This document shows positions 17,469-28,338 of a DNA stretch of 64,000 nt, in pieces; the first letter of the stretch is position 1; each line of letters begins with the position of its first letter. Made by a program: the position numbers and the translations under genes. Location of the stretch: assembly GCF_009834915.1 (NCBI RefSeq), contig NZ_WVHS01000001.1, forward strand, positions 868,001-932,000. The letters are read 5' to 3'. Below the pieces are notes generated by a model. That model was not told the DNA's origin, did not search any database, and saw only the letters and a list, made by a program, of their open reading frames with translations. Source of the stretch: Hufsiella ginkgonis. Its GTDB lineage: Bacteria > Bacteroidota > Bacteroidia > Sphingobacteriales > Sphingobacteriaceae.

Positions 17469-18739
17469 ATGGATCCGGGCAAACCTGAAAATCTGTTCCA
17501 CCTCGTCGTGTTTGAGCACGAAGTGGTGCGCGTAGATACACGAAATGCACGGAATAAGCAGCTTCAGCGCGCATGTTATGAAGCGCTCTGTGCGTTTCAC
17601 GGCGAAAATGGCGTCCCTTATTTCCGGTTGGTGCATAATGGTGTCAGGTTCTGTGAATACGTGGGGGTACTACAGGTTGGCCGCTTTACGATCGAGGTAC
17701 TACCAAAAGCAGATAAAAACGGCGATAACTCTTCCGAAACCAAATGGCAGCGCATCCTGATCCGCATGCTTCGCGAAAGCGGCAATTTCCCGGTGGAAGC
17801 TCCAAGTAGTTCAAACCTGAACTTAAAAAGCAATTCTATACTCGATCTATATATTCGTTCGTTCCTTGACCACGTGAATACGCTCATTCACCAGGGCTTG
17901 GTAAAAAAATACCGGAAAACCGAAGGAAATATGGGAACGTTGAAAGGGAGGCTCCTGTTTAATCGTCAACTTCAACGCAACCTGGTGCACGCCGAACGCT
18001 TCTATACCGCATACAGCGTTTACGACCGCGACCATATTTATCATCAACTCCTCTTTAAAACCCTGAAGCTGATCGCCGGAATCGCCCCGCATAACTTCGC
18101 CGGCGAAGCCAGCCGCCTCCAGCTATCGTTTCCTGAACAGGATGACATCCGCGTTACCGAATGCACTTTTTCCCTGCTCAGGACAGATCGAAAAATTGCC
18201 CGGTATGCACCTGCGCTGAAGATCGCCCGCCTGCTGTTGCTTAACTACCACCCGGATGTGGCAGGCGGAAGAAATCACGTACTCGCATTGCTATTCGATA
18301 TGAACAGGGTGTGGGAGGCCTGCGTGCTGCACAAATTCAGGAACTATCACACGAAAATTCGCATATCCGCGTCAGCGGACAAGAAAGCGAAACATTCTGG
18401 AATGGCCGCAGCATACGTCCGGATATCGTGGTCCGCCCAACCGGTCATACCCCGATCGTTATCGACACTAAGTGGAAAGCAATTTCCGACCCCGAGCCTT
18501 CTATCGAAGACGTACGGCAGATGTATGCATATAACCATCATTTTAAGAGTGTTAAGGCAGTATTGCTTTACCCTGACGTGTACGGGGTGGAGGGTCAATC
18601 CGGAAGCTATTCACTGGATAATCTTCACGCGGATGCGGAAGTGAAAAGCCATAAGTGTGAGGTTTTCTTCCTGGGGGTGGGTGCGAATTATGATGACGTG
18701 CTGGTTAAGTTAATGAGGTTGGTGGGGGGGAAATTATAA
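17469..18739 (+). pseudogene. mcrC: McrC-like nuclease subunit with a frameshift
   Basis: It starts at ATG 17469, 17 bases after the mcrB remnant. The N-terminal part matches McrC (FRLVHNGVRFCEYVGVLQVG, and GTLKGRLLFNRQLQRN near 155-170). After LLFDMNRVWEACVL near 18325 the reading frame is lost. The nuclease core RPDIVVRPTGHTPIVIDTKWK (PD-(D/E)xK: D, D-x-K) continues in another frame from about 18345 to the TAA at 18739. The original frame instead runs to 18644 in unrelated sequence. One single-base event near 18335-18345 explains this. The catalytic residues are still encoded, so this partner was probably lost after or together with mcrB. Confidence 0.82.
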
Positions 18740-18966
18740 TGAATTTCCGGCCATGAGGATGATTGACTCTCTTGGGTAGGTAAAGAACACTTGTTATAGT
18801 AATGCCACCCGATCAAAACTTAAATTACTTTCGCGATTCTTGGCTTGAAACCATACTTTTGAATATTCCCACAGTTTGGCGAGAGAAGTACCGTAGCGAT
18901 TATATCTCTTTAGTGCGCACTCTTGCCTGGGGGTGTCAAACAAGATGTATAAACCAGCTATTCCCA

Positions 18967-21900
18967 ATGGCCTTCAACGAAGATTCAAGAGTAAAAATAC
19001 CTGCCTTGCTTCATCTGGTTCGGCTGGGATACCAATACATCCCGCGGAAGGCACAAACATGCGCGGAAGAAACCAACATCTTTCCAGCCATCTTTAAAGA
19101 AAGTATACAGCGAATAAACCCAGGTTTTACCGACATTGAAGTCGAACAGCTATTAGGAGACTTAACCCTAAAGCTTGATTACGATGACTTGGGTCGCGAT
19201 TTCTATAAAGCGTTAACAGCAACCTCCGGTATCAAATTAATCGACTTCAAAAACTTTGCAAACAACAGTTTTCATGTTACTACCGAACTGACCTGCAAAA
19301 ACGGCGATGAGGAATTCCGCCCGGATATCACCGTACTCATCAACGGAATCCCATTAGTGTTCATCGAGGTAAAGAAGCCCAATAACCGCGAAGGCGTATT
19401 AGCAGAACGGACCCGGATCAACAGGCGTTACAGCAACCGCAAGTTCAAGCGCTTTGCCAACATCACCCAACTCATGATTTTCTCCAATAACATGGAGTAC
19501 GAAGACGGCGTAATAGAACCTGTACAAGGCGCTTATTATGCCACCTCCGCTTATGGGGATTTGCATTTCAATTATTTCAGGGAAGAAGATAACCTGGACC
19601 TCAACAAAATTTTGCAACCTGAAAACGAAGAGCTTGAGAACGACATCCTAAAAGACAACAACGTTGCGGCGATAAAGTACACCCCTGAGTTCCATACCAA
19701 TAAGCATTATCATACCCCAACACATCGCATATTAACCTCGCTGCTAAGTAAAGACCGGCTGACGTTCATTCTCCGGTATACGCTTGCGTACGTGGAAGAA
19801 AATACCGATGGCATTACTTCCAGGCAAAAGCACGTGATGCGGTACCCGCAGCTATTCGCTACGAAAGCAATAACCATGAAACTGGATGCCGGGCTTAAAA
19901 AAGGCATTATCTGGCACACCCAGGGCTCCGGTAAAACGGCGCTCGCTTACTATAACGTTAAGCACCTTACAGACTATTATCAAAAGCAGAACAAAGTCCC
20001 TAAGTTTTATTTTATAGTCGACCGGATTGACCTGGCTATACAGGCTGCCTCCGAATTCACTAACCGCGGCCTGCGTGTAAACACCGTAAATTCCCGTACC
20101 GATTTTGTAAACGACATCAAAACCGTTGGCGCCATCCACAACGATAGTGGAGAGGCCGAAATTTCGGTCGTAAACATCCAGAAGTTTACGGAAGAAGCTA
20201 CGGTAACCATCAATCCGGAATACGATATCAACATCCAGCGCATCTATTTCCTGGACGAAGCGCATCGCTCCTACAATCCCAAAGGCAATTACCTGGCTAA
20301 CCTGATCAATTCAGACAAGCAAGCCATCAAGATCGCCCTCACCGGAACGCCCTTGCTCAAACAGGTGGTGAAGGAATACGATAGCAAGGAACTTTTCGGC
20401 GGCTACATTCATAAATACTATTACAACCAGTCGATTGCCGATGGGTATACGCTGCGACTGATCCGCGAGGGCATTGATACCACCTATAAAATGCAGATGC
20501 AGGAAATCCTGGAGCAGATCAACATTTTACAGGGGGATATCAAAAAGTCGCAGGTGTACGCGCATCCCAAGTATGTGGCGCCGTTGCTGGATTACATCAT
20601 CAACGACCTGCAAAAGTTCCAGTTACAGGATCCGTCATTGGGCGGCATGGTGGTTTGCGATTCGGCAGAACAAGCCAAAGCGTTATTCGAACATTTCGAA
20701 GCGCGGTTCGGGGTACAAGAAACATCGGCTGCCAACCTCAACCCGATTGGTTCAACTGATACACACTCCAAGAGCTCAACCCGGCCACTTACTGCTGCGC
20801 TTATCCTACATGATGCGAACGACAAGAGCGTCCGTAAAGACCTGATCCAGGCATATAAGCACAGCAAAATTGATCTCCTGTTTGTATACAATATGCTGTT
20901 AACCGGGTTTGATGCTAAGCGGCTGAAGAAGCTCTATCTCACCCGGGTCATCAAAGATCATAATCTCCTTCAAACCCTCACCCGGGTAAATCGCCCGTAC
21001 AAAAAATACCGATTCGGGTACGTGGTCGATTTTGCCGACATCACCTCCGCTTTCGATAAAACAAACCGCCTGTACTTCGACGAACTAAAAGCCGAACTGG
21101 GCGATGAGATGGAAAGCTACAACCAACTCTTTCGCTCGGCGGAAGAAATTGAAGCCGATATCGCCCAAATCAAGGACGTTCTCTTCCATTACGAAACCAC
21201 TAACGCGGAGGTATTCCGGCAGCAGATCGAGCAAATCAGGGACCGTGGCACTTTACACGAACTTATTAAGGCGTTACAAAACGCCAAAGAGCTGAAAAAC
21301 ATCATCCGGCTCGAAGGGTTCGACGAATTGCTGCAACGGCTCGACTTCGTAAAGCTGAACCAGTTACTGCGCGAGGCGGAAGGCCAACTGGAAAAGCTGA
21401 ACCTGATCGAAGCCATCAACAACGATGCCGACACCACCAACCTGTTGAACACCGCGCTTGAGGACGTGATCTTCCTGTTCACCAAGATCTCAGAAAGCGA
21501 ACTCATCCTTGCCGACGAGCTCAAAAACCAGTTACGGCAAACCCGCGAAGCCCTGCAAAGCAATTTCGACCAACAGGACCCGCAGTTCGTTACCCTGAAA
21601 GAAGAGCTCGAACGAATATTTAAGAAAAAGAACCTGGACGAAGTAACGCAGGAGGATATGAAAGAGAACATCTTCTTGCTGCGAGCCATTTACGACAAGG
21701 TGAAAGAACTGAACCGCAAAAATGACCTGTTGCGAGCCAAGTACGACCAGGATGAAAAATACGTGCGGGTGCACAAACGGCTGGTAGAGAAAGGAACCCT
21801 AACCATTAAAGAAGCTCAACTCCACGATGCATTAAAAGTGATTAAACAACAAACAGACGCGCAGTTGCTCAAAAGCAGGCAACTGACCGAAAATGAGGCA

Positions 21901-22044
21901 TACTTTAAAGACTTCTTGTTAAAACTTGTAGTAAGAGAGGTGAAACAGGAACAAAAGATGGATCTCGATTTTGCTACCACATCAGCGATTAACACACTAA
22001 TCGTAAACGAATACCTGCAGCTACATAACAACTACGCAAGATGA
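18967..22044 (+). CDS. hsdR: Type I restriction enzyme, R (motor/nuclease) subunit
   Basis: A 1025-residue HsdR. The N-terminal nuclease shows RPDITVLINGIPLVFIEVKK (D-ExK type, about 116-135). The helicase has Walker A QGSGKT near 318-323, DEAH in YFLDEAHRSYN near 428, a TGTPLL motif and a C-terminal motor half with LTRVNRPYKKYRFGYVVDFAD. A helical C-terminal region probably contacts the methylase. I chose ATG 18967 because MAFNEDSRVKIPALLHL is the usual HsdR beginning; the frame is open from 18802 but those 55 residues look unrelated. It overlaps hsdM by ATGA. It translocates and cuts unmodified DNA as part of HsdRMS. Confidence 0.93.
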   Translation: MAFNEDSRVKIPALLHLVRLGYQYIPRKAQTCAEETNIFPAIFKESIQRINPGFTDIEVEQLLGDLTLKLDYDDLGRDFYKALTATSGIKLIDFKNFANNSFHVTTELTCKNGDEEFRPDITVLINGIPLVFIEVKKPNNREGVLAERTRINRRYSNRKFKRFANITQLMIFSNNMEYEDGVIEPVQGAYYATSAYGDLHFNYFREEDNLDLNKILQPENEELENDILKDNNVAAIKYTPEFHTNKHYHTPTHRILTSLLSKDRLTFILRYTLAYVEENTDGITSRQKHVMRYPQLFATKAITMKLDAGLKKGIIWHTQGSGKTALAYYNVKHLTDYYQKQNKVPKFYFIVDRIDLAIQAASEFTNRGLRVNTVNSRTDFVNDIKTVGAIHNDSGEAEISVVNIQKFTEEATVTINPEYDINIQRIYFLDEAHRSYNPKGNYLANLINSDKQAIKIALTGTPLLKQVVKEYDSKELFGGYIHKYYYNQSIADGYTLRLIREGIDTTYKMQMQEILEQINILQGDIKKSQVYAHPKYVAPLLDYIINDLQKFQLQDPSLGGMVVCDSAEQAKALFEHFEARFGVQETSAANLNPIGSTDTHSKSSTRPLTAALILHDANDKSVRKDLIQAYKHSKIDLLFVYNMLLTGFDAKRLKKLYLTRVIKDHNLLQTLTRVNRPYKKYRFGYVVDFADITSAFDKTNRLYFDELKAELGDEMESYNQLFRSAEEIEADIAQIKDVLFHYETTNAEVFRQQIEQIRDRGTLHELIKALQNAKELKNIIRLEGFDELLQRLDFVKLNQLLREAEGQLEKLNLIEAINNDADTTNLLNTALEDVIFLFTKISESELILADELKNQLRQTREALQSNFDQQDPQFVTLKEELERIFKKKNLDEVTQEDMKENIFLLRAIYDKVKELNRKNDLLRAKYDQDEKYVRVHKRLVEKGTLTIKEAQLHDALKVIKQQTDAQLLKSRQLTENEAYFKDFLLKLVVREVKQEQKMDLDFATTSAINTLIVNEYLQLHNNYAR

Positions 22045-23657
22045 CAGATATAACCTTTATCACGCAGACCAAGCAATTAATAGACAGCCTGAAGAGCGTC
22101 TGCGCTAATTATGGGTTAGGGAACGATGGGAATGAGTTTAAGATCATTACCCAAATGTTTTTGTACAAGTTTATTAACGACAAATTCAGTTTCGAAGCAA
22201 AAAAACAAAACCCTAAGCTTGAAAAAGCCGGCAACTTTCATGAAGCATTAAAGGCGCTGAACGATGACGAATTCCAGTTCCTCACCGCGTTAATCGGTGC
22301 CGGGGTCCCGAAGCTGAAACCAGAGCAGATGATTACGCACTTGTATAACAATCAGAACCAACCCGATTTCGCAGTTTTGTTTGATGCCACCTTGCAGGCC
22401 ATCAGCGTAGACAACGCAGATATTTTCTCTGTAAAATCAGCCAGCGGTGCGAAAGACAAAATGTTCGACCAGCTGAGCCAATTCATTACCGATCCTTCCC
22501 AGCGCGATGCGTTTTGCCGGGCCCTGGTGAACAAGCTATTCGAATTCAGCTTCGAGCGGATGTTTAGCGAGAAGTACGACTTCTTCGCTACTATTTTCGA
22601 ATACCTGATAAAAGACTACAACACCGATAGCGGTGGTAAATATGCAGAGTACTACACCCCGCACGCGGTAGCACGTATTATGGCTGCCATTATGGTACCC
22701 GAACCGGTTGAAAACGTGACCTGTTACGACCCCAGCGCAGGATCCGGCACCCTGCTCATGAACATTGCCCATGCCATAGGGGAAGATAACTGTACGGTGT
22801 ATTCTGAAGATATCTCTCAAAAGTCCTCGAATATGCTGCGGCTAAATTTGGTGTTGAACAATCTATCACGATCGATTCCAAACATCATTAAAACCAATAC
22901 GATTTCAGAGCCGTATTACTTAGGTCGCAAATTTGACTATATCGTTTCCAATCCTCCGTTCAAGCTTGATTTTTCTGACTTCCGAGAGACGCTAGAGAAA
23001 GATGCTTATAAAGAGCGTTTTTTTGCAGGCATCCCGAAGGTGCCAAATAAGGAAACAACAAAGATGCCGATTTACTTATTGTTCATTCAGCATATCATGA
23101 CCAGCCTTAGTAAAATGGGGAAAGCGGCGATTGTAGTGCCGACTGGATTTATAACTGCACAAGGTGGAATAGAAAAGAGGATTAGGGAGCAAATGATTGA
23201 AGGTAAAATGCTTAAGGGGGTGGTTAGTATGCCTAGTAATATTTTCGCAAGTACCGGCACAAATGTGAGTGTAATATTCCTGGATCGAGAAGCTGACAGC
23301 CAAAATATTGTATTAATAGATGCTTCTAACCTAGGCACAGTAGTAAAAGAGAACAAAAATCAACGAACAGTACTTGAATCAATCGAAGAAGAACGCATAG
23401 TTTCTGTGATAAATAGCAAAGAGAGTGTTGAAGATTTCTCCGTTGTATTAACAACGGACCTTATCCGAGAGAAAAATTACTCATTTTCGGCGGGGCAATA
23501 CTTCAATGTAACAATTGAACACGTCAATATTACCCCCACAGAGTTTAAGCAAAGGATTAATACTTATACAGAAACATTAAACCGACTAGCTTTTCGGTCA
23601 AATCAGCTCGACTATGAGATTAAAGTGCAACTGAATGGCCTTGGATATGAAAACTGA
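22041..23657 (+). CDS. hsdM: Type I restriction-modification DNA methyltransferase, M subunit
   Basis: A 538-residue N6-adenine methylase subunit. An N-terminal helical HsdM domain covers about 1-160, TPHAVARIMAAIM precedes the SAM site DPSAGSGTLL near 230, and the catalytic NPPF is near 304 in YIVSNPPFKLDF. The start overlaps the hsdR stop and the end overlaps hsdS, so all three are one coupled unit. The 3' third is clearly richer in A/T than the 5' part and than neighbouring genes, which continues into hsdS. Confidence 0.94.
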   Translation: MTDITFITQTKQLIDSLKSVCANYGLGNDGNEFKIITQMFLYKFINDKFSFEAKKQNPKLEKAGNFHEALKALNDDEFQFLTALIGAGVPKLKPEQMITHLYNNQNQPDFAVLFDATLQAISVDNADIFSVKSASGAKDKMFDQLSQFITDPSQRDAFCRALVNKLFEFSFERMFSEKYDFFATIFEYLIKDYNTDSGGKYAEYYTPHAVARIMAAIMVPEPVENVTCYDPSAGSGTLLMNIAHAIGEDNCTVYSEDISQKSSNMLRLNLVLNNLSRSIPNIIKTNTISEPYYLGRKFDYIVSNPPFKLDFSDFRETLEKDAYKERFFAGIPKVPNKETTKMPIYLLFIQHIMTSLSKMGKAAIVVPTGFITAQGGIEKRIREQMIEGKMLKGVVSMPSNIFASTGTNVSVIFLDREADSQNIVLIDASNLGTVVKENKNQRTVLESIEEERIVSVINSKESVEDFSVVLTTDLIREKNYSFSAGQYFNVTIEHVNITPTEFKQRINTYTETLNRLAFRSNQLDYEIKVQLNGLGYEN

Positions 23658-25641
23658 ATTTACAGATAAGTTTATAGAGGAATTATTAGTAAATGAAAAA
23701 GGCGCACTCATTTCCGGGCCATTTGGCTCTGATATAAGTAGCAAATTTTTCACACAAGTTGGTGTACCCGTGATTAGAGGGAACAACCTAAGTAAGGAGA
23801 ATATTAAATTTATTGATGATGGCTTTGCGTTTGTTTCCGAAAAAAAAGCAGATGAACTAGACGCATATGCGATAAAAGATGACATTGTATTCACTGCAGC
23901 TGGTACAATCGGGCAAGTTGGGATAATAGACGAAACCGCGAGATATAGCAAATACATAATATCTAACAAACAGATACGGGTTAGATTGGATAAAACCAAA
24001 GTTCTTCCTTTATATGCTTACTATTGGCTATCAAGTCCTTGGATCGTTAAGAACTTAATTGCAAAAAATACCGGCAGTACAGTTCCTCTGATAAATCTAG
24101 GTGTAATTCGTAAGCTGAACATTAGGATTCCGAAACAGAAAATCATTGAAGAGAATATCGTCCGAATCCTTTCATCAATAGATGATAAAATTTTATTGAA
24201 TAGAGAAATCAGTACTAACTTAGATGGAATCGCGAAAACGGTGTACGATTACTGGTTTCTGCAGTTCGATTTCCCTAATAGCGTTGGTAAGCCTTTTAAG
24301 TCTTCTGGCGGAAAAATGACCTACAACAGCAAATTAGGGTGTGAAATACCAGAAGATTGGACTGTTACGAGCATTACTGAATGTATCGATCATGACAAAA
24401 GTGGAGATTGGGGGAAAGAATATCCAGAGGGCAACAATAACTTAGAGGTAGCTTGCATTAGGGGTGCCGACATAAATGGCTTAAATGGAGTCGGAGAGAT
24501 AAAAGCACCGGTTCGATTCATTTTGAGCAAAAATTCACACAAATTATTAGAAACTCATGACGTAATTGTTGAAATTTCTGGAGGAAGTCCAACGCAATCA
24601 ACGGGGCGATTGGGTTTCGTAACAGAAGAAACACTTGAACGTTTCGACAAACCTCTTATTTGTTCTAACTTTTGCAAAGCCGTTTCTTTGAAGAACAAAA
24701 AACAGCTTTTTCACTTTGCTCAATCATGGAATAATGCCTACCAAAATGGTGTGCTGTTTGGTTTTGAAGGAAAAACTAGTGGTATAAAGAACTTGCTGTT
24801 CGATTCATTCGTAAACTCTTATCAGATTGCCGGTCCGCCAGATCACTTGATTGAACAGTTTTACAACCTTATTCTACCCTTTCATAAGCAACAGCAAAAT
24901 TTGCTTAAGCAAAATCTGGAACTCGCTCAGTTAAGAGATTGGTTGCTTCCAATGCTAATGAATGGCCAAGCTACCGTAGGTGAGAATGCGACAATCACTG
25001 AAAACCAGGTTAATCAAACCTCGCAAAACGACACGCTCTGCATTGCACCGGCAAAACAAGGCTTCGCCAAACAAACCCTCGCAGGCAACATCATTTCCCT
25101 TTTCAAAGACGATCCCCACTTCACCGATATCAAATTCCAGAAAGTCCAGTTCCTCGCCGAACATATCGCTGAAGCCGACCTCAACCTAAACTATTATTAC
25201 CAGGCCGCCGGCCCGTATGACAATAAGTTTATGCACACTATTCACACCGATCTTAAGAAAAACCAATGGTTTGACAAGGTCGGGAAGAAGTACGTACCGC
25301 TTGCCAAGCAAAATAAAATACAAGAATACTTTCAAGGTTATTTCGCTCCGGCCCAGCAAAAGTTGAACACGTTATTCGGTCTCTTACAGGATACCACCGA
25401 AGCAGAAGCAGAAATCATCGCCACAACCTACGCAGTTTGGAACAACCGGCTTATAGAGAAAAGAACCTCCCCTGATAACGAACTCATTGAAGACTTTTTC
25501 AAGTGGAGCGAGCGTAAACAGCAATATTCAGCAGAGCAGGTGAAATGGGCGCTGCATTGGTTACGCGAAAACAAGTTTGAGCCAAAGGGATTTGGGAAAC
25601 TGATTAAGAAAGCAAAAAGTAAAAGCGGCGCGACCGCATAA
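23647..25641 (+). CDS. hsdS: Type I specificity subunit with an extra C-terminal domain
   Basis: A 664-residue HsdS. Target recognition domain 1 covers about 1-170, then the conserved helices with ILSSIDDKILLNREI and YDYWFLQFDFP. Domain 2 covers about 225-400, then the second helical spacer with LAQLRDWLLPMLMNGQ near 425-440. Ordinary HsdS proteins end here; this one has about 215 more residues, including FQKVQFLAEHI, NYYYQAAGPYD and a basic tail. The extension resembles small winged or Panacea-like helper domains, but I cannot name it. The TRD-coding part is A/T-rich and the extension is not, pointing to exchange of the specificity half. ATG 23635 is an alternative start. Confidence 0.9.
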   Translation: MKTEFTDKFIEELLVNEKGALISGPFGSDISSKFFTQVGVPVIRGNNLSKENIKFIDDGFAFVSEKKADELDAYAIKDDIVFTAAGTIGQVGIIDETARYSKYIISNKQIRVRLDKTKVLPLYAYYWLSSPWIVKNLIAKNTGSTVPLINLGVIRKLNIRIPKQKIIEENIVRILSSIDDKILLNREISTNLDGIAKTVYDYWFLQFDFPNSVGKPFKSSGGKMTYNSKLGCEIPEDWTVTSITECIDHDKSGDWGKEYPEGNNNLEVACIRGADINGLNGVGEIKAPVRFILSKNSHKLLETHDVIVEISGGSPTQSTGRLGFVTEETLERFDKPLICSNFCKAVSLKNKKQLFHFAQSWNNAYQNGVLFGFEGKTSGIKNLLFDSFVNSYQIAGPPDHLIEQFYNLILPFHKQQQNLLKQNLELAQLRDWLLPMLMNGQATVGENATITENQVNQTSQNDTLCIAPAKQGFAKQTLAGNIISLFKDDPHFTDIKFQKVQFLAEHIAEADLNLNYYYQAAGPYDNKFMHTIHTDLKKNQWFDKVGKKYVPLAKQNKIQEYFQGYFAPAQQKLNTLFGLLQDTTEAEAEIIATTYAVWNNRLIEKRTSPDNELIEDFFKWSERKQQYSAEQVKWALHWLRENKFEPKGFGKLIKKAKSKSGATA

Positions 25642-25657
25642 TCAACGTTTATCGATC

Positions 25658-26008
25658 ATGAGTGGCTACAAAATGAATGCATCGGCTACCCAACTACCTG
25701 AAAGCAGGTTATGGGATGAATTAAGCCGGAAGCTGGCAGGTACAAAAAGCGTTACGAGTGTAAACGGCATCATTTATAAGTTGGAGAATATTAATAATGC
25801 GGAAGTCAGCTATTCCGTCGAATCCCGGAATGGTGGTGAATCTGAACCAATAAGTAAAGAAGATTTCCTTTCTGCAATAAGTCTCCTTAAAAAGATGCGA
25901 TCATTTAATACCTCGACTATCAAACCGTATTTTTCCGGCCCGCTTTATAAGAAACGGTCACCGCTATTTGCGTTGCTTTTGGCCGCCGGCTTTATTGACC
26001 GCGAATAA
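25658..26008 (+). CDS. Small protein of unknown function after hsdS
   Basis: A 116-residue protein starting 17 bases after hsdS in the same direction (a second ATG at 25673 is possible). It has an N-terminal helix (LWDELSRKLAGTKSV), a strand pair with NNAEVSYSVESR, a helix (KEDFLSAISLLKKM) and a C-terminal stretch with KKRSPLFALLLAAGFID. I see no catalytic motif and recognise no family. Its position suggests it belongs to the restriction operon, for instance as a helper or control protein, but this is inference. Confidence 0.65.
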   Translation: MSGYKMNASATQLPESRLWDELSRKLAGTKSVTSVNGIIYKLENINNAEVSYSVESRNGGESEPISKEDFLSAISLLKKMRSFNTSTIKPYFSGPLYKKRSPLFALLLAAGFIDRE

Positions 26009-26272
26009 ATTTTAGATGTTCAAATGTAGAAGCCATATAGGTTAGGAAGTTGTGATTATGTTCATGCCAAGCGCCACTTGTCAAAATGATTAATTAAGTA
26101 TTTATTTCTTTTAAATTAAAAATATCGTTCGCATTTTTATAGTGCGTTACACGCCTGGTCTCATACTCGGTGTCTATTATTAACAACATCCCAGGCAAGC
26201 AGGTGTAAGTCCTCGCACTCTTCCGGTAACTCGGCGTGTAACGCGGTGACCTGGGTATTTAAACATTTCGAT
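26009..26272. other. Gap with a 12-base inverted repeat before the radC-like gene
   Basis: GCGTTACACGCC (26146-26157) and its exact reverse complement GGCGTGTAACGC (26233-26244) are 75 bases apart, and GCGTTACACG appears again at 26275-26284, over the start of the JAB protein. The part up to about 26140 is A/T-rich. The inner sequence GCAGGTGTAAGTCC recalls intron-type RNA words, but there is too little to call an intron. Possible regulatory RNA or the footprint of a mobile element. Confidence 0.4.
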
Positions 26273-26743
26273 ATGCGTTACACGAAAAAACACCCCCTCA
26301 AAGAAGCCGAGCTCCACCTCTCCTTCAAACCTCCCACCAACCCCATCAAAATTTCCAGCTGTACGGATGCCGAACGCGCCTTCCGCTCCATTTGGGATAC
26401 CCCCCTGCTCCCCATCCAGGAACAGTTCTACGTGATCTACCTCAACCGAGCCAGCCACGTATTGTGCTGGCGCTGCCTCCACACTGGCACCTGTACAGGC
26501 GCCACGATAGACATCAAACTGTTATTAGCTACCGCCTACGGATGTTTGGCGCAAAGTGTGCTCATTGCGCATAATCACCCGTCCGGGAGCTTAAAACCCT
26601 CCAAAGCCGATCTTAAGCTCACTAACACGATCGATCTGGCGTGCCATTATAATGAGTTGATGCTGCTGGATCATATCATCCTCAATCAAAACAGCTTTAT
26701 GAGTTTCGTTGATGCGAGGTTGTTATCAGGGTATGACAAGTGA
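26273..26743 (+). CDS. RadC-like JAB-domain protein
   Basis: A 156-residue protein of the RadC/DUF2466 JAB family without the N-terminal helix-hairpin-helix. The metal motif is HNHPSGSLKPSKAD at 100-113 (H100, H102, D113). Family members are common in genomic islands and plasmids; their biochemical role is unsettled despite the DNA-repair name. I chose ATG 26273 (MRYTKKHPLKE). A decayed second copy lies at about 28340-28618 in the same orientation, with the two toxin-antitoxin-like pairs in between. Confidence 0.85.
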   Translation: MRYTKKHPLKEAELHLSFKPPTNPIKISSCTDAERAFRSIWDTPLLPIQEQFYVIYLNRASHVLCWRCLHTGTCTGATIDIKLLLATAYGCLAQSVLIAHNHPSGSLKPSKADLKLTNTIDLACHYNELMLLDHIILNQNSFMSFVDARLLSGYDK

Positions 26744-27183: not shown

Positions 27184-27789
27184 ATGACTCCTTATCAACC
27201 CTCGTATCTCATAGGCTACCACGCCTGTGATAAGGAAATTGGCATGCGTATTTTGCAGGGTAATGACGACTTAAATAGCAGCACTAACCCTTGGGACTGG
27301 CTTGGGCATGGTGCATATTTCTGGGAACAGGATGTAATGCGGGCCGCTCAATATGCTTATGAAACAGCTGCGGGGATGCAGCGAAATAAGAATGGAATAA
27401 AGGTGCCATTTGTTCTTGGTGCGATCATTGATCCCGGGAACTGCTTGAACCTGGTAGAGTCCCGTGCAATGCCAGTGTTAAGCCGTGCTTATGAAATGAT
27501 AAACAACATCTATCACTTATCCGGCAAATTGCTGCCGACAAATAAAGAGAAGATCCGATTCCTGGATTGTGCAGTGATGAACTATGTTCATGTGATGAAT
27601 CAGCAGGAACATAGGCCTCCCTACGATACTATACGCTGTGCATTTCCGGAAGGGGAAGCCATTTACCCGGGCTCAATGATCAGTTCCCGGTTACATATAC
27701 AAATTTGTGTTTGTAACCCTGCTTGTATCAAAGGTTTCTTTGTGCCGAGACCAATTACGGAGTATAGTTCGCATTTGAAAACGGCTTAG
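27184..27789 (+). CDS. Putative ADP-ribosyltransferase-like toxin
   Basis: A 201-residue protein with GYHACD at 11-16 and DWLGHGAYFWE at 38-48, followed by a helix with Ala repeats (RAAQYAYETAA). This order of a YH-type strand followed by a G-x-YF segment is the layout of ADP-ribosyltransferase folds (H and Y of the H-Y-E triad). It is characteristic of a widespread family of about 200 residues, mostly annotated as hypothetical. The C-terminal FPEGEAIYPGSM...HIQICV segment (about 158-178) could carry the third catalytic residue. It lies directly behind a small protein inside a defence island. Toxin activity and target are inferred, not shown. Confidence 0.6.
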   Translation: MTPYQPSYLIGYHACDKEIGMRILQGNDDLNSSTNPWDWLGHGAYFWEQDVMRAAQYAYETAAGMQRNKNGIKVPFVLGAIIDPGNCLNLVESRAMPVLSRAYEMINNIYHLSGKLLPTNKEKIRFLDCAVMNYVHVMNQQEHRPPYDTIRCAFPEGEAIYPGSMISSRLHIQICVCNPACIKGFFVPRPITEYSSHLKTA

Positions 27790-27800
27790 CACAATGATAT

Positions 27801-28004
27801 ATGGCAAAAGCGATTAAAGTTAACCTATCGGTTACCCGTACTGCGCTGGATAAAAAACTGGAGAAGCTGGAAAAAAAGCGGAAGCCTATCGACCTGGACA
27901 AATATGCCGGGAAGGTGAACTTCGGCGTAGATGGCCTGGAATACCAGTTGAAAGTCCGCGATGAGTGGCGATCAGGTAGTGGTCGACACCTCCCTGATCA
28001 TTAA
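27801..28004 (+). CDS. vapB: VapB-like antitoxin
   Basis: A 67-residue protein with basic helices (LDKKLEKLEKKRKPIDLDKYAGKVN) that overlaps the following PIN-domain gene by 44 bases. It resembles the short antitoxins paired with PIN toxins in Bacteroidota, which neutralise the nuclease and bind the operon promoter. I see no clear AbrB or ribbon-helix-helix signature, so the name rests on size and pairing. Confidence 0.65.
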   Translation: MAKAIKVNLSVTRTALDKKLEKLEKKRKPIDLDKYAGKVNFGVDGLEYQLKVRDEWRSGSGRHLPDH

Positions 28005-28338
28005 TCTCTTTAATGGCGTACAGGGAGTTCAGCAACTGATCGAAGGCCGGAGCCTGTTCGTATCTGTTGTATCCGAAATCGAAGTGCTTAGCTTTCCTGC
28101 GTTGACAGCCACGGGTAAACGGCTGATTAAAGATTTTCTTGCCGAATGTTATGTCGTTGATCCTGAACCAGCTATAAAGGAGCTTACGATTGATATCCGC
28201 TCGAAAACCAAGGTAAAACTGCCAGACGCCATCATTGCAGCTACAGCAATTTATTTCGACTTACCGTTGTTTACCATGGATGGTGGTTTTAACCGTGTGA
28301 GTCAATTAAGCGCGGTGGTGTTTTCTTTCAAGAAATAG
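27961..28338 (+). CDS. vapC: PIN-domain ribonuclease toxin (VapC type)
   Basis: A 125-residue PIN protein with the acidic residues expected of the family: D9 in VVVDTSLIINLF, E39/E41 in SEIEVLSF, D89 in KLPDAIIAATA and D107 in FTMDGGF. VapC toxins are magnesium-dependent RNases that cut tRNA or rRNA. All core residues are present and the length is normal, so it is probably active. It is co-encoded with the upstream antitoxin. Confidence 0.85.
   Translation: MSGDQVVVDTSLIINLFNGVQGVQQLIEGRSLFVSVVSEIEVLSFPALTATGKRLIKDFLAECYVVDPEPAIKELTIDIRSKTKVKLPDAIIAATAIYFDLPLFTMDGGFNRVSQLSAVVFSFKK

What the first reader, a model, noticed from the sequence alone, without database searches (positions are those of the whole stretch)
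23647..25641. HsdS with a 215-residue C-terminal extension of different composition
After the second conserved helical spacer (near residue 440) the protein continues with a separate domain (FQKVQFLAEHI, NYYYQAAGPYD). The TRD-coding half is A/T-rich while the extension has the host-like composition, which suggests that only the specificity half was swapped. The extension may be a control or phage-sensing module.
Basis: partly seen in the sequence, partly recalled or inferred. Interest (0 to 1): 0.5.

Follow-up and report, generated by a model that had tools for sequence, protein, structure and literature searches.

The report
Restriction enzyme subunit with borrowed antitoxin-like domain
The DNA-recognition subunit of a bacterial restriction system carries an extra, separately folded tail related to domains that bacteria use to hold toxins in check; the tail is optional and appears to have been passed between unrelated restriction systems, so it may be a plug-in control or infection-sensing part.

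Summary
HsdS (23647-25641) ends its ordinary part at the second spacer (LRDWLLPMLMNGQ, about residue 445); about 215 residues follow. They fold as one domain (AlphaFold2 pLDDT 95.7). The one clear match among solved structures is the DarG antitoxin's C-terminal domain (7yk3_B, Z 14.3, 163 residues, rmsd 3.3; next entry Z 5.5). Profiles link it to DarG (97.5%, E 7e-12) and, more distantly, to Panacea/DUF4065 antitoxins (94.6%, E 7e-8); reversed decoys give 0.1%. A predicted Panacea model also finds the DarG domain first.

The domain is optional: of 9 intact HsdS genes beside this HsdM type (window included), 7 lack it. It is swapped independently of HsdM and HsdR. It also occurs on HsdM, and as free proteins behind ECF sigma-like genes, often near CBASS/Bil-type operons. 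No common partner gene was found (limited test); net charge does not suit a DNA mimic. Best reading: a portable control/sensor module; function unproven.

The parts
18802..22044 (+). hsdR, type I restriction subunit (1080 aa)
   Evidence: Pfam SWI2_SNF2, HSDR_N, ResIII, T1R_D3-like
22041..23657 (+). hsdM, type I methyltransferase (538 aa)
   Evidence: Pfam N6_Mtase E 8.6e-59; PADLOC MTase_I E 1.7e-246
23647..25641 (+). hsdS with C-terminal extension (664 aa; an alternative in-frame ATG at 23635 gives 668 aa)
   Evidence: PADLOC Specificity_I E 3.5e-71 over residues 31-446
23647..24990 (+). ordinary HsdS part: TRD1, first spacer, TRD2, second spacer ending LRDWLLPMLMNGQ (residues 1 to about 448; limits approximate)
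   Evidence: in 7 intact relatives HsdS ends within a few dozen residues of this motif
25051..25599 (+). DarG-CTD/Panacea-superfamily domain (residues 469-651, from the HMM match)
   Evidence: AF2 pLDDT 95.7; 7yk3_B Z 14.3; hhalign to DarG CTD 97.5% and Panacea 94.6%
25141..25518 (+). conserved residues of the domain: K499, G522, P523, D525, E589, T593 (75 of 75 sequences each), W620 (72 of 75), K624 (74 of 75)
   Evidence: column counts on alignment A3

Best explanation
Shown: the extension is a separately folding domain of the superfamily that includes the C-terminal domain of the DarG antitoxin and, more distantly, the Panacea antitoxin domain. It is optional on its R-M core and is exchanged between unrelated type I systems. 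Inferred: it is a portable control module of the R-M complex. From its place on HsdS (in other systems on HsdM) it would bind a partner or ligand linked to infection or cell state and, by binding or releasing it, change the activity of the M2S/R2M2S complex, much as free copies of the domain are inferred to act on an ECF sigma-like protein beside CBASS/Bil-type operons and as DarG's copy holds DarT. As closely related extensions sit on unrelated HsdM/HsdR, the partner is more likely an outside signal or a widely conserved cell component than a specific HsdR or HsdM surface.
For: Fold. Profile homology; controls. The Panacea model finds the DarG domain too. Optional: 2 of 9 intact HsdS next to this HsdM type carry it, the window being one. 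Modular exchange: L096 has HsdM 56-61% and HsdR 55-57% identical to seven window-type systems (L046-L051, L056) but an extension only 27-29% identical, while that extension is 59-64% identical to those of eight systems whose HsdM and HsdR are 20-23% and 18-19% identical; Acinetobacter L081 against Pseudomonas L114: HsdM 66%, HsdR 71%, extension 29%. In 50 loci only HsdR-type and HsdM-type neighbours are common (47 each; next commonest 6). Free copies: 29 of 36 have a 196-266 aa gene directly upstream; the profile of 28 of these matches ECF sigma factors; 19 of 32 free-copy loci lie near a CD-NTase or ubiquitin-like operon. Panacea has been proposed to be a sensor (PMC10440598, passages seen).
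Against: No experiment and no ligand. The characterised relatives are described as direct neutralisers (DarG CTD, standalone Panacea). The link with sigma-like genes concerns other branches of the domain tree. Exchange between systems could also reflect a generic binding or structural aid. Overall the extension still correlates with HsdM (rank correlation 0.54). The CBASS/Bil count used seeds from these same loci and includes near-copies. The neighbour test would miss short or unrelated partner genes.
Confidence: 0.4

Rival explanations
1. Grafted antitoxin: the domain neutralises a toxin, encoded next to it or elsewhere, so that loss or phage inhibition of the R-M complex frees the toxin (a guard or addiction arrangement).
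For: Its characterised relatives, DarG and Panacea, are antitoxins. In L063 darT and darG follow an HsdS end with the extension, like the EPEC DarTG2-in-R-M island (PMC12255303, passages seen). In L124 a Panacea gene lies before and a DUF3990 gene directly after the extended hsdS. In the window an unidentified 116-aa gene starts 20 bases after hsdS.
Against: No DarT found in the window's genome at E 1e-3. No gene beyond HsdR/HsdM types is shared by more than 6 of 50 loci, and 11 of 50 have no same-strand gene of 90 aa or more within 400 bases downstream. But that test would miss shorter genes and toxins that differ from locus to locus, as Panacea's do.
Confidence: 0.24
2. Accessory DNA-binding or stabilising extension: a basic domain that adds DNA affinity or supports the M2S assembly, without sensing anything.
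For: Mean net charge +2.5 per 100 residues over 75 sequences (range -3.2 to +8.6), window +5 over 199 residues. The N-terminal half weakly resembles winged-helix regulators (Z 4-5.5, within noise). BREX BrxX has a winged helix after its spacer (PMC12839542, passages seen).
Against: The superfamily's characterised members bind proteins. Optional presence and exchange between unrelated cores are not expected of a core stability element.
Confidence: 0.22
3. DNA-mimic brake: like the DarG domain, reported to mimic ssDNA, the extension occupies the DNA site of the complex.
For: Same fold as the DarG domain of the DarTG complex 7yk3; ssDNA mimicry is in the title of Deep et al. 2023 (seen in reference lists only) and is restated in PMC11481870 (passage seen).
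Against: Net charge mostly has the opposite sign: DarG CTDs mean -2.9 per 100 residues (n=6, range -4.9 to +1.2), extension family +2.5 (n=75). Net charge is not a surface map.
Confidence: 0.06
4. Ordinary part of this HsdS subfamily without a fold or function of its own.
For: Nearest relatives found in Sphingobacterium also carry it, though they were found by searching for it.
Against: High-confidence separate fold, free-standing homologues, absence from 7 of 9 intact HsdS of the same core.
Confidence: 0.02

Closest known systems
C-terminal domain of DarG (DarTG toxin-antitoxin; PDB 7yk3 chain B)
   Same: Same fold (Z 14.3 over 163 residues); profile homology; shared K, GP, E-x3-T and W
   Different: No macrodomain, no DarT found in the genome, mostly basic instead of acidic, fused to HsdS
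Panacea / SocA antitoxin domain (PF13274, DUF4065)
   Same: Profile homology 94.6%, E 7e-8; the Panacea model's best solved match is also the DarG domain; shared K and GP motif
   Different: No Pfam PF13274 hit; no common co-encoded toxin seen (limited)
Free domain copies behind ECF sigma-like genes, often near CBASS/Bil-type operons
   Same: Same domain family (HMM E about 2e-53 to 7e-81)
   Different: Free protein with its own N-terminal stretch of about 50 aa; sigma-like gene directly upstream in 29 of 36
Type I R-M HsdS with R-M-S operon
   Same: Ordinary HsdS part and operon
   Different: 215-residue extension after the second spacer; 7 of 9 intact HsdS of the same core end there
EPEC RptR-RMS-DarTG-M48 island (PMC12255303, passages seen)
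   Same: Type I R-M physically combined with DarTG parts
   Different: There DarTG are separate genes between hsdS and hsdR; here only a DarG-CTD-like domain, fused to HsdS (whether the EPEC HsdS has the domain was not checked)

Membership tests
Type I R-M specificity subunit (HsdS) | TRD/spacer architecture in an operon with hsdR and hsdM | tested here: met
   PADLOC Specificity_I over residues 31-446 (E 3.5e-71); neighbours HsdR and HsdM. Pfam Methylase_S detected one stretch only, residues 39-190
DarG antitoxin | N-terminal macrodomain (ADP-ribosylglycohydrolase) | tested here: not met
   No Macro hit in the HsdS at E up to 1; four true DarG proteins do hit
DarG antitoxin | C-terminal domain fold | tested here: met
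   7yk3_B Z 14.3, rmsd 3.3, 163 aligned; Foldseek prob 1.00, E 7.6e-3
DarG antitoxin | darT adjacent or at least present | tested here: not met
   PF14487: 0 matches in G000 at E 1e-3
DarG antitoxin | acidic, ssDNA-mimicking surface | tested here: inconclusive
   Net charge only, no surface map: +5 of 199 here; 6 DarG CTDs mean -2.9 per 100, one of them +1.2
Panacea/SocA (PF13274) | Pfam PF13274 match | tested here: not met
   No hit at E up to 1 for the whole HsdS or its last 213 residues
Panacea/SocA (PF13274) | profile homology | tested here: met
   hhalign 94.6%, E 7.3e-8, 132 columns; reversed decoy 0.1%. With only 10 Panacea sequences it was 22%, E 9e-4
Panacea/SocA (PF13274) | same fold | tested here: inconclusive
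   Indirect: both models find 7yk3_B first, but for Panacea at Z 6.8, rmsd 4.9, 123 aligned; the two models were not superposed
Panacea/SocA (PF13274) | co-encoded toxin (PanT) | tested here: inconclusive
   No neighbour beyond HsdR/HsdM types in more than 6 of 50 loci, but genes under 90 aa and locus-specific toxins would be missed; the window's 116-aa downstream gene is unidentified
Panacea/SocA (PF13274) | toxin neutralisation | not testable with these tools
   needs an assay

The most novel reading that the evidence does not exclude
One portable infection-sensing domain, the common core of Panacea antitoxins and of DarG's C-terminal domain, has been plugged into at least four kinds of immune output: type I R-M complexes (on HsdS or HsdM), ECF sigma factors controlling CBASS and ubiquitin-like (Bil) operons, the DarT toxin, and PanT toxins. 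It restrains each of them until a common phage-linked trigger arrives.
Probability: 0.25. Interest if true: 0.85.

Novelty: new variant of a known kind. Interest (0 to 1): 0.6.

Why it matters
Type I R-M complexes are usually treated as self-contained. A mobile domain of an antitoxin superfamily on the specificity subunit would make some of them switchable, and would tie R-M, DarTG, Panacea toxin-antitoxin pairs and sigma-linked CBASS/Bil operons together through one fold. It gives a concrete test of the open question what the Panacea domain senses: related extensions on unrelated R-M cores can be moved and assayed by phage plaquing and methylation.

Tried and rejected
Pfam, NCBIfam, PHROGs and PDB sequence searches of the extension gave nothing at their cut-offs (sub-threshold NCBIfam matches to an ATPase and a YlbF family, KdpE-like PDB chains at E 0.27-1.6, and PADLOC PtuA1 at E 0.0023 were treated as chance). 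A DNA-mimic reading was marked down on charge. A partner toxin was sought in own-genome DarT and in neighbour clusters without success; single loci (L063, L124) do have toxin-like neighbours. The 116-aa gene after the window's hsdS (25658-26008) clusters with nothing near the other 49 loci. Foldseek itself gave no hit under E 1e-3; the claim rests on its probability of 1.00, the VIA Z and the profiles. GenBank phage records had no match, plasmids one, IMG/VR two loci, L014 and L015, both extended HsdS beside HsdM-type genes.

On checking the draft I found that the neighbour test is weaker than first stated (same strand, 90 aa or more, within 4 kb, single linkage at E 1e-8; the HsdR cluster also takes in other large proteins), so I moved the odds of the main reading from 0.42 to 0.40 and of the grafted antitoxin from 0.20 to 0.24, and dropped a claim that the E-x3-T and W motif is shared with Panacea.

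Limits. One search is a 395-genome sample: 31 genomes match the domain; 15 open frames of 560 aa or more in 14 genomes, not all scanned one by one. 283 of 395 genomes have Methylase_S, but HsdS genes were not counted, as that list is cut. HsdM of the window's type: 15 places in 14 genomes. Of 13 fetched regions 8 held an intact HsdS, called by position and end motif (7 without, 1 with the domain); L180, L182, L189, L190 and L191 were broken or ran off the DNA held and were not counted, and L178 was not fetched again. In one search, 46 loci with a non-HsdM ORF of 520 aa or more were taken and 4 dropped (L055, L057, L074, L104) because no HsdM or HsdR was recognised; HsdM and HsdR were picked by motif and nearness, and lists of discordant pairs were cut at 20. 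In one search, of 36 free copies 6 had no upstream partner (L061, L063, L071, L076, L084, L089; L084 and L089 begin 140 bases from the end of the DNA held, L063 and L076 at its first bases) and one (L026) follows an HsdS-like ORF. A7 left out L108, the sister of L107; L019 and L020 are only 15-18% identical to its first row. Several free-copy loci are near-copies of each other.
Full report
What is there. The window holds a type I R-M operon: hsdR 18802-22044, hsdM 22041-23657, hsdS 23647-25641 (or from 23635), all + strand. PADLOC's Specificity_I model covers HsdS residues 31-446 (E 3.5e-71). The sequence LRDWLLPMLMNGQ closes the second spacer; about 215 residues follow. The host genome falls in the same family group as G111, whose contig has the same length as that of the Sphingobacterium record L046, so it is probably Sphingobacteriaceae (inference).

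Composition. GC/GC3: HsdR 0.466/0.584, HsdM first 350 codons 0.444/0.563, HsdM rest 0.385/0.351, TRD1 0.360/0.312, TRD2 0.398/0.335, extension 0.454/0.551. Against ten relatives found through the extension, HsdM identity is 60-68% and extension 55-66%; among comparisons with at least 70 aligned columns TRD1 is 21-39% (7 loci), TRD2 22, 22, 59, 60 and 61% (5 loci). That is the usual swapping of target-recognition domains.

Fold. An alignment of 75 domain sequences (A3) gave a model with mean pLDDT 95.7 and pTM 0.92. Among solved structures the first hits are 7yk3_B and D, the DarTG complex of M. tuberculosis (Foldseek prob 1.00, E 7.6e-3 and 1.1e-2; next hit E 0.56); VIA-align gives Z 14.3, rmsd 3.3, 163 residues, next entry Z 5.5. 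That chain B is the DarG C-terminal domain is inferred from the entry title, the chain length (188) and the sequence homology below.

Homology. True DarG proteins (macrodomain plus C-terminal domain) turned up in the same searches. Profile comparison: extension against DarG CTDs 97.5%, E 6.9e-12, 150 columns; extension against Panacea (28 sequences, from PF13274 hits) 94.6%, E 7.3e-8, 132 columns (with 10 sequences only 22%, E 9e-4); DarG CTD against Panacea 86.1%, E 5e-6, 71 columns (48.5% with the smaller Panacea set). Controls: extension and Panacea against the sigma-like alignment 0.2% each, extension against reversed DarG and Panacea alignments 0.1% each. A Panacea model (pLDDT 90.5) has 7yk3_B as best solved match (Foldseek prob 0.96, E 7.3e-3, next 4.2; Z 6.8, rmsd 4.9, 123 residues, next 3.2; a Z under 8 alone may mean little). 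Extension and DarG CTD share K, GP, E-x3-T and W; with Panacea the K and GP are shared. In A3, K499, G522, P523, D525, E589 and T593 are invariant (75 of 75), K624 74 of 75, W620 72 of 75. Pfam gives no PF13274 hit for the extension, so it is a distant relative and is not filed as Panacea or DarG.

Distribution. Domain matches: 12 of 201 genomes of the family, 31 of 395 of the phylum, 96 candidates in genome contigs of which the best 80 were kept, from Bacteroidota, Pseudomonadota, Spirochaetes, a planctomycete and an archaeon by record title (several are MAGs); two IMG/VR contigs, one plasmid, no GenBank phage. Open frames of 560 aa or more with the domain: 15 in 14 of the 395 genomes; Methylase_S is in 283 of 395. 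Tree of 81 domains: HsdS 43, free 25, DarG 6, HsdM 4 (by motif; Pfam checked for L111), truncated 3; the four architectures need at least 6 changes (quick tree, 28 of 78 inner branches open, two long branches meet).

Optional and exchanged. HsdM of the window's type (E 1e-90 or better) occurs at 15 places in 14 of 395 genomes. Of the 9 intact HsdS next to it, 7 (405-465 aa) stop soon after the second spacer and 2 (window, G279) carry the domain. In 42 loci, identity tables show exchange in both directions: similar cores with unlike extensions (L096 and L121 against window-type systems: extension 27-29%, HsdM 56-68%, HsdR 55-61%; L081 against L114: HsdM 66%, HsdR 71%, extension 29%) and unlike cores with similar extensions (L096 and L125: extension 64%, HsdM 22%, HsdR 18%). 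Overall rank correlation is 0.54 for extension-HsdM, 0.48 for extension-HsdR, 0.80 for HsdM-HsdR, so the link is loosened, not absent.

Partners. Among 50 HsdS/HsdM loci only HsdR-type and HsdM-type genes are common neighbours (47 each; next commonest 6); 11 of 50 have no same-strand gene of 90 aa or more within 400 bases downstream. The test covers same-strand genes of 90 aa or more within 4 kb and would miss shorter or locus-specific partners. No DarT was found in the window's genome. By contrast, 29 of 36 free copies follow directly a 196-266 aa gene; 28 of these, aligned as A7, match ECF sigma factors as a profile (PDB SigW E 9e-7); one member alone gives sigma70-ECF E 1e-9 and Sig70_bacteroi1 E 3.6e-12, both below NCBIfam's cut-offs; Pfam sigma70 region 2 and region 4 each match 11 of 28 at E up to 0.1. 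Of 32 free-copy loci, 17 have a CD-NTase homologue and 2 a ubiquitin-like/E2-E1/JAB set; among the other loci searched only L005 and L006, which are second copies of L072 and L073, do (the seeds came from these loci; Pfam SMODS, ThiF, Prok-JAB, E2 and ubiquitin hits for most of the seeds).

How it may work. The domain's characterised relatives bind and inhibit proteins (DarT: PMC11481870 and PMC12170906, passages seen; PanT toxins: PMC8832971 and PMC10440598, passages seen); the last paper proposes that Panacea is a sensor. On HsdS the domain sits where it could sway the M2S/R2M2S complex. Because related extensions sit on unrelated HsdM and HsdR, I favour a control module answering to an outside or widely shared signal. 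DNA mimicry is disfavoured by net charge. A grafted antitoxin and a plain accessory DNA-binding domain remain open.

Novelty. Searches of the held open-access library listed no paper that by title, abstract start or the passages I opened reports this domain on HsdS or links DarG's C-terminal domain with Panacea; several of these lists were cut, and subscription papers, including Deep et al. 2023 (not read), and preprints are not covered. The passages of PMC8832971 name DarG only as a dual-function antitoxin; PMC10440598 holds no 'DarG' and says that DarTG escaped its prediction. PADLOC's HsdM and HsdS profiles already contain the domain, so such proteins are catalogued though the module is not named there.

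Noticed in passing
L072 7220-8561, L087 7139-8546, L105 7214-8558 and others: ECF sigma-like gene directly followed by a free DarG-CTD/Panacea-superfamily protein, often divergent from CBASS (CD-NTase) or ubiquitin-like (Bil-type) operons: a candidate sigma/anti-sigma control pair of immune operons.
   Followed up: partly
L063 2-5047: Syntrophoarchaeum MAG contig: end of an extended HsdS, then DarT (Pfam E 1.8e-61), DarG, then a gene resembling HsdR (not scanned); DarTG inside a type I R-M operon whose HsdS itself carries a DarG-CTD-like domain.
   Followed up: partly
L124 695-9706: Spirochaetia record: HsdM-type gene, a Panacea gene (PF13274), HsdS with the extension, a DUF3990 gene, HsdR.
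   Followed up: partly
L062, L066, L111, L022: The same domain at the end of an HsdM-type protein (Pfam N6_Mtase checked for L111, others by motif); L062 and L066 have a second HsdM-type gene beside it.
   Followed up: partly
window 17469-18739: Gene that looks like McrC (name recalled, no call) in two overlapping frames (17469-18644 and 18311-18739), which suggests a frameshift; a McrB-like ATPase (name recalled) lies before it.
   Followed up: no
window 25658-26008: 116-aa protein 20 bases after hsdS with no Pfam or PADLOC hit above threshold; a possible partner of the extension.
   Followed up: partly
window 27184-27789: 201-aa protein with a weak PADLOC match to PD-T4-9_A (E 3.1e-6) and no Pfam or NCBIfam hit, followed by a PIN-domain protein at 27961-28338.
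   Followed up: no
window 26246-26743: RadC-like JAB-domain protein (Pfam E 6.5e-28) two genes after hsdS.
   Followed up: no
L026 (G467): An HsdS-like ORF (406 aa) and the domain (188 aa) lie in two successive ORFs: a split or frameshifted gene.
   Followed up: no
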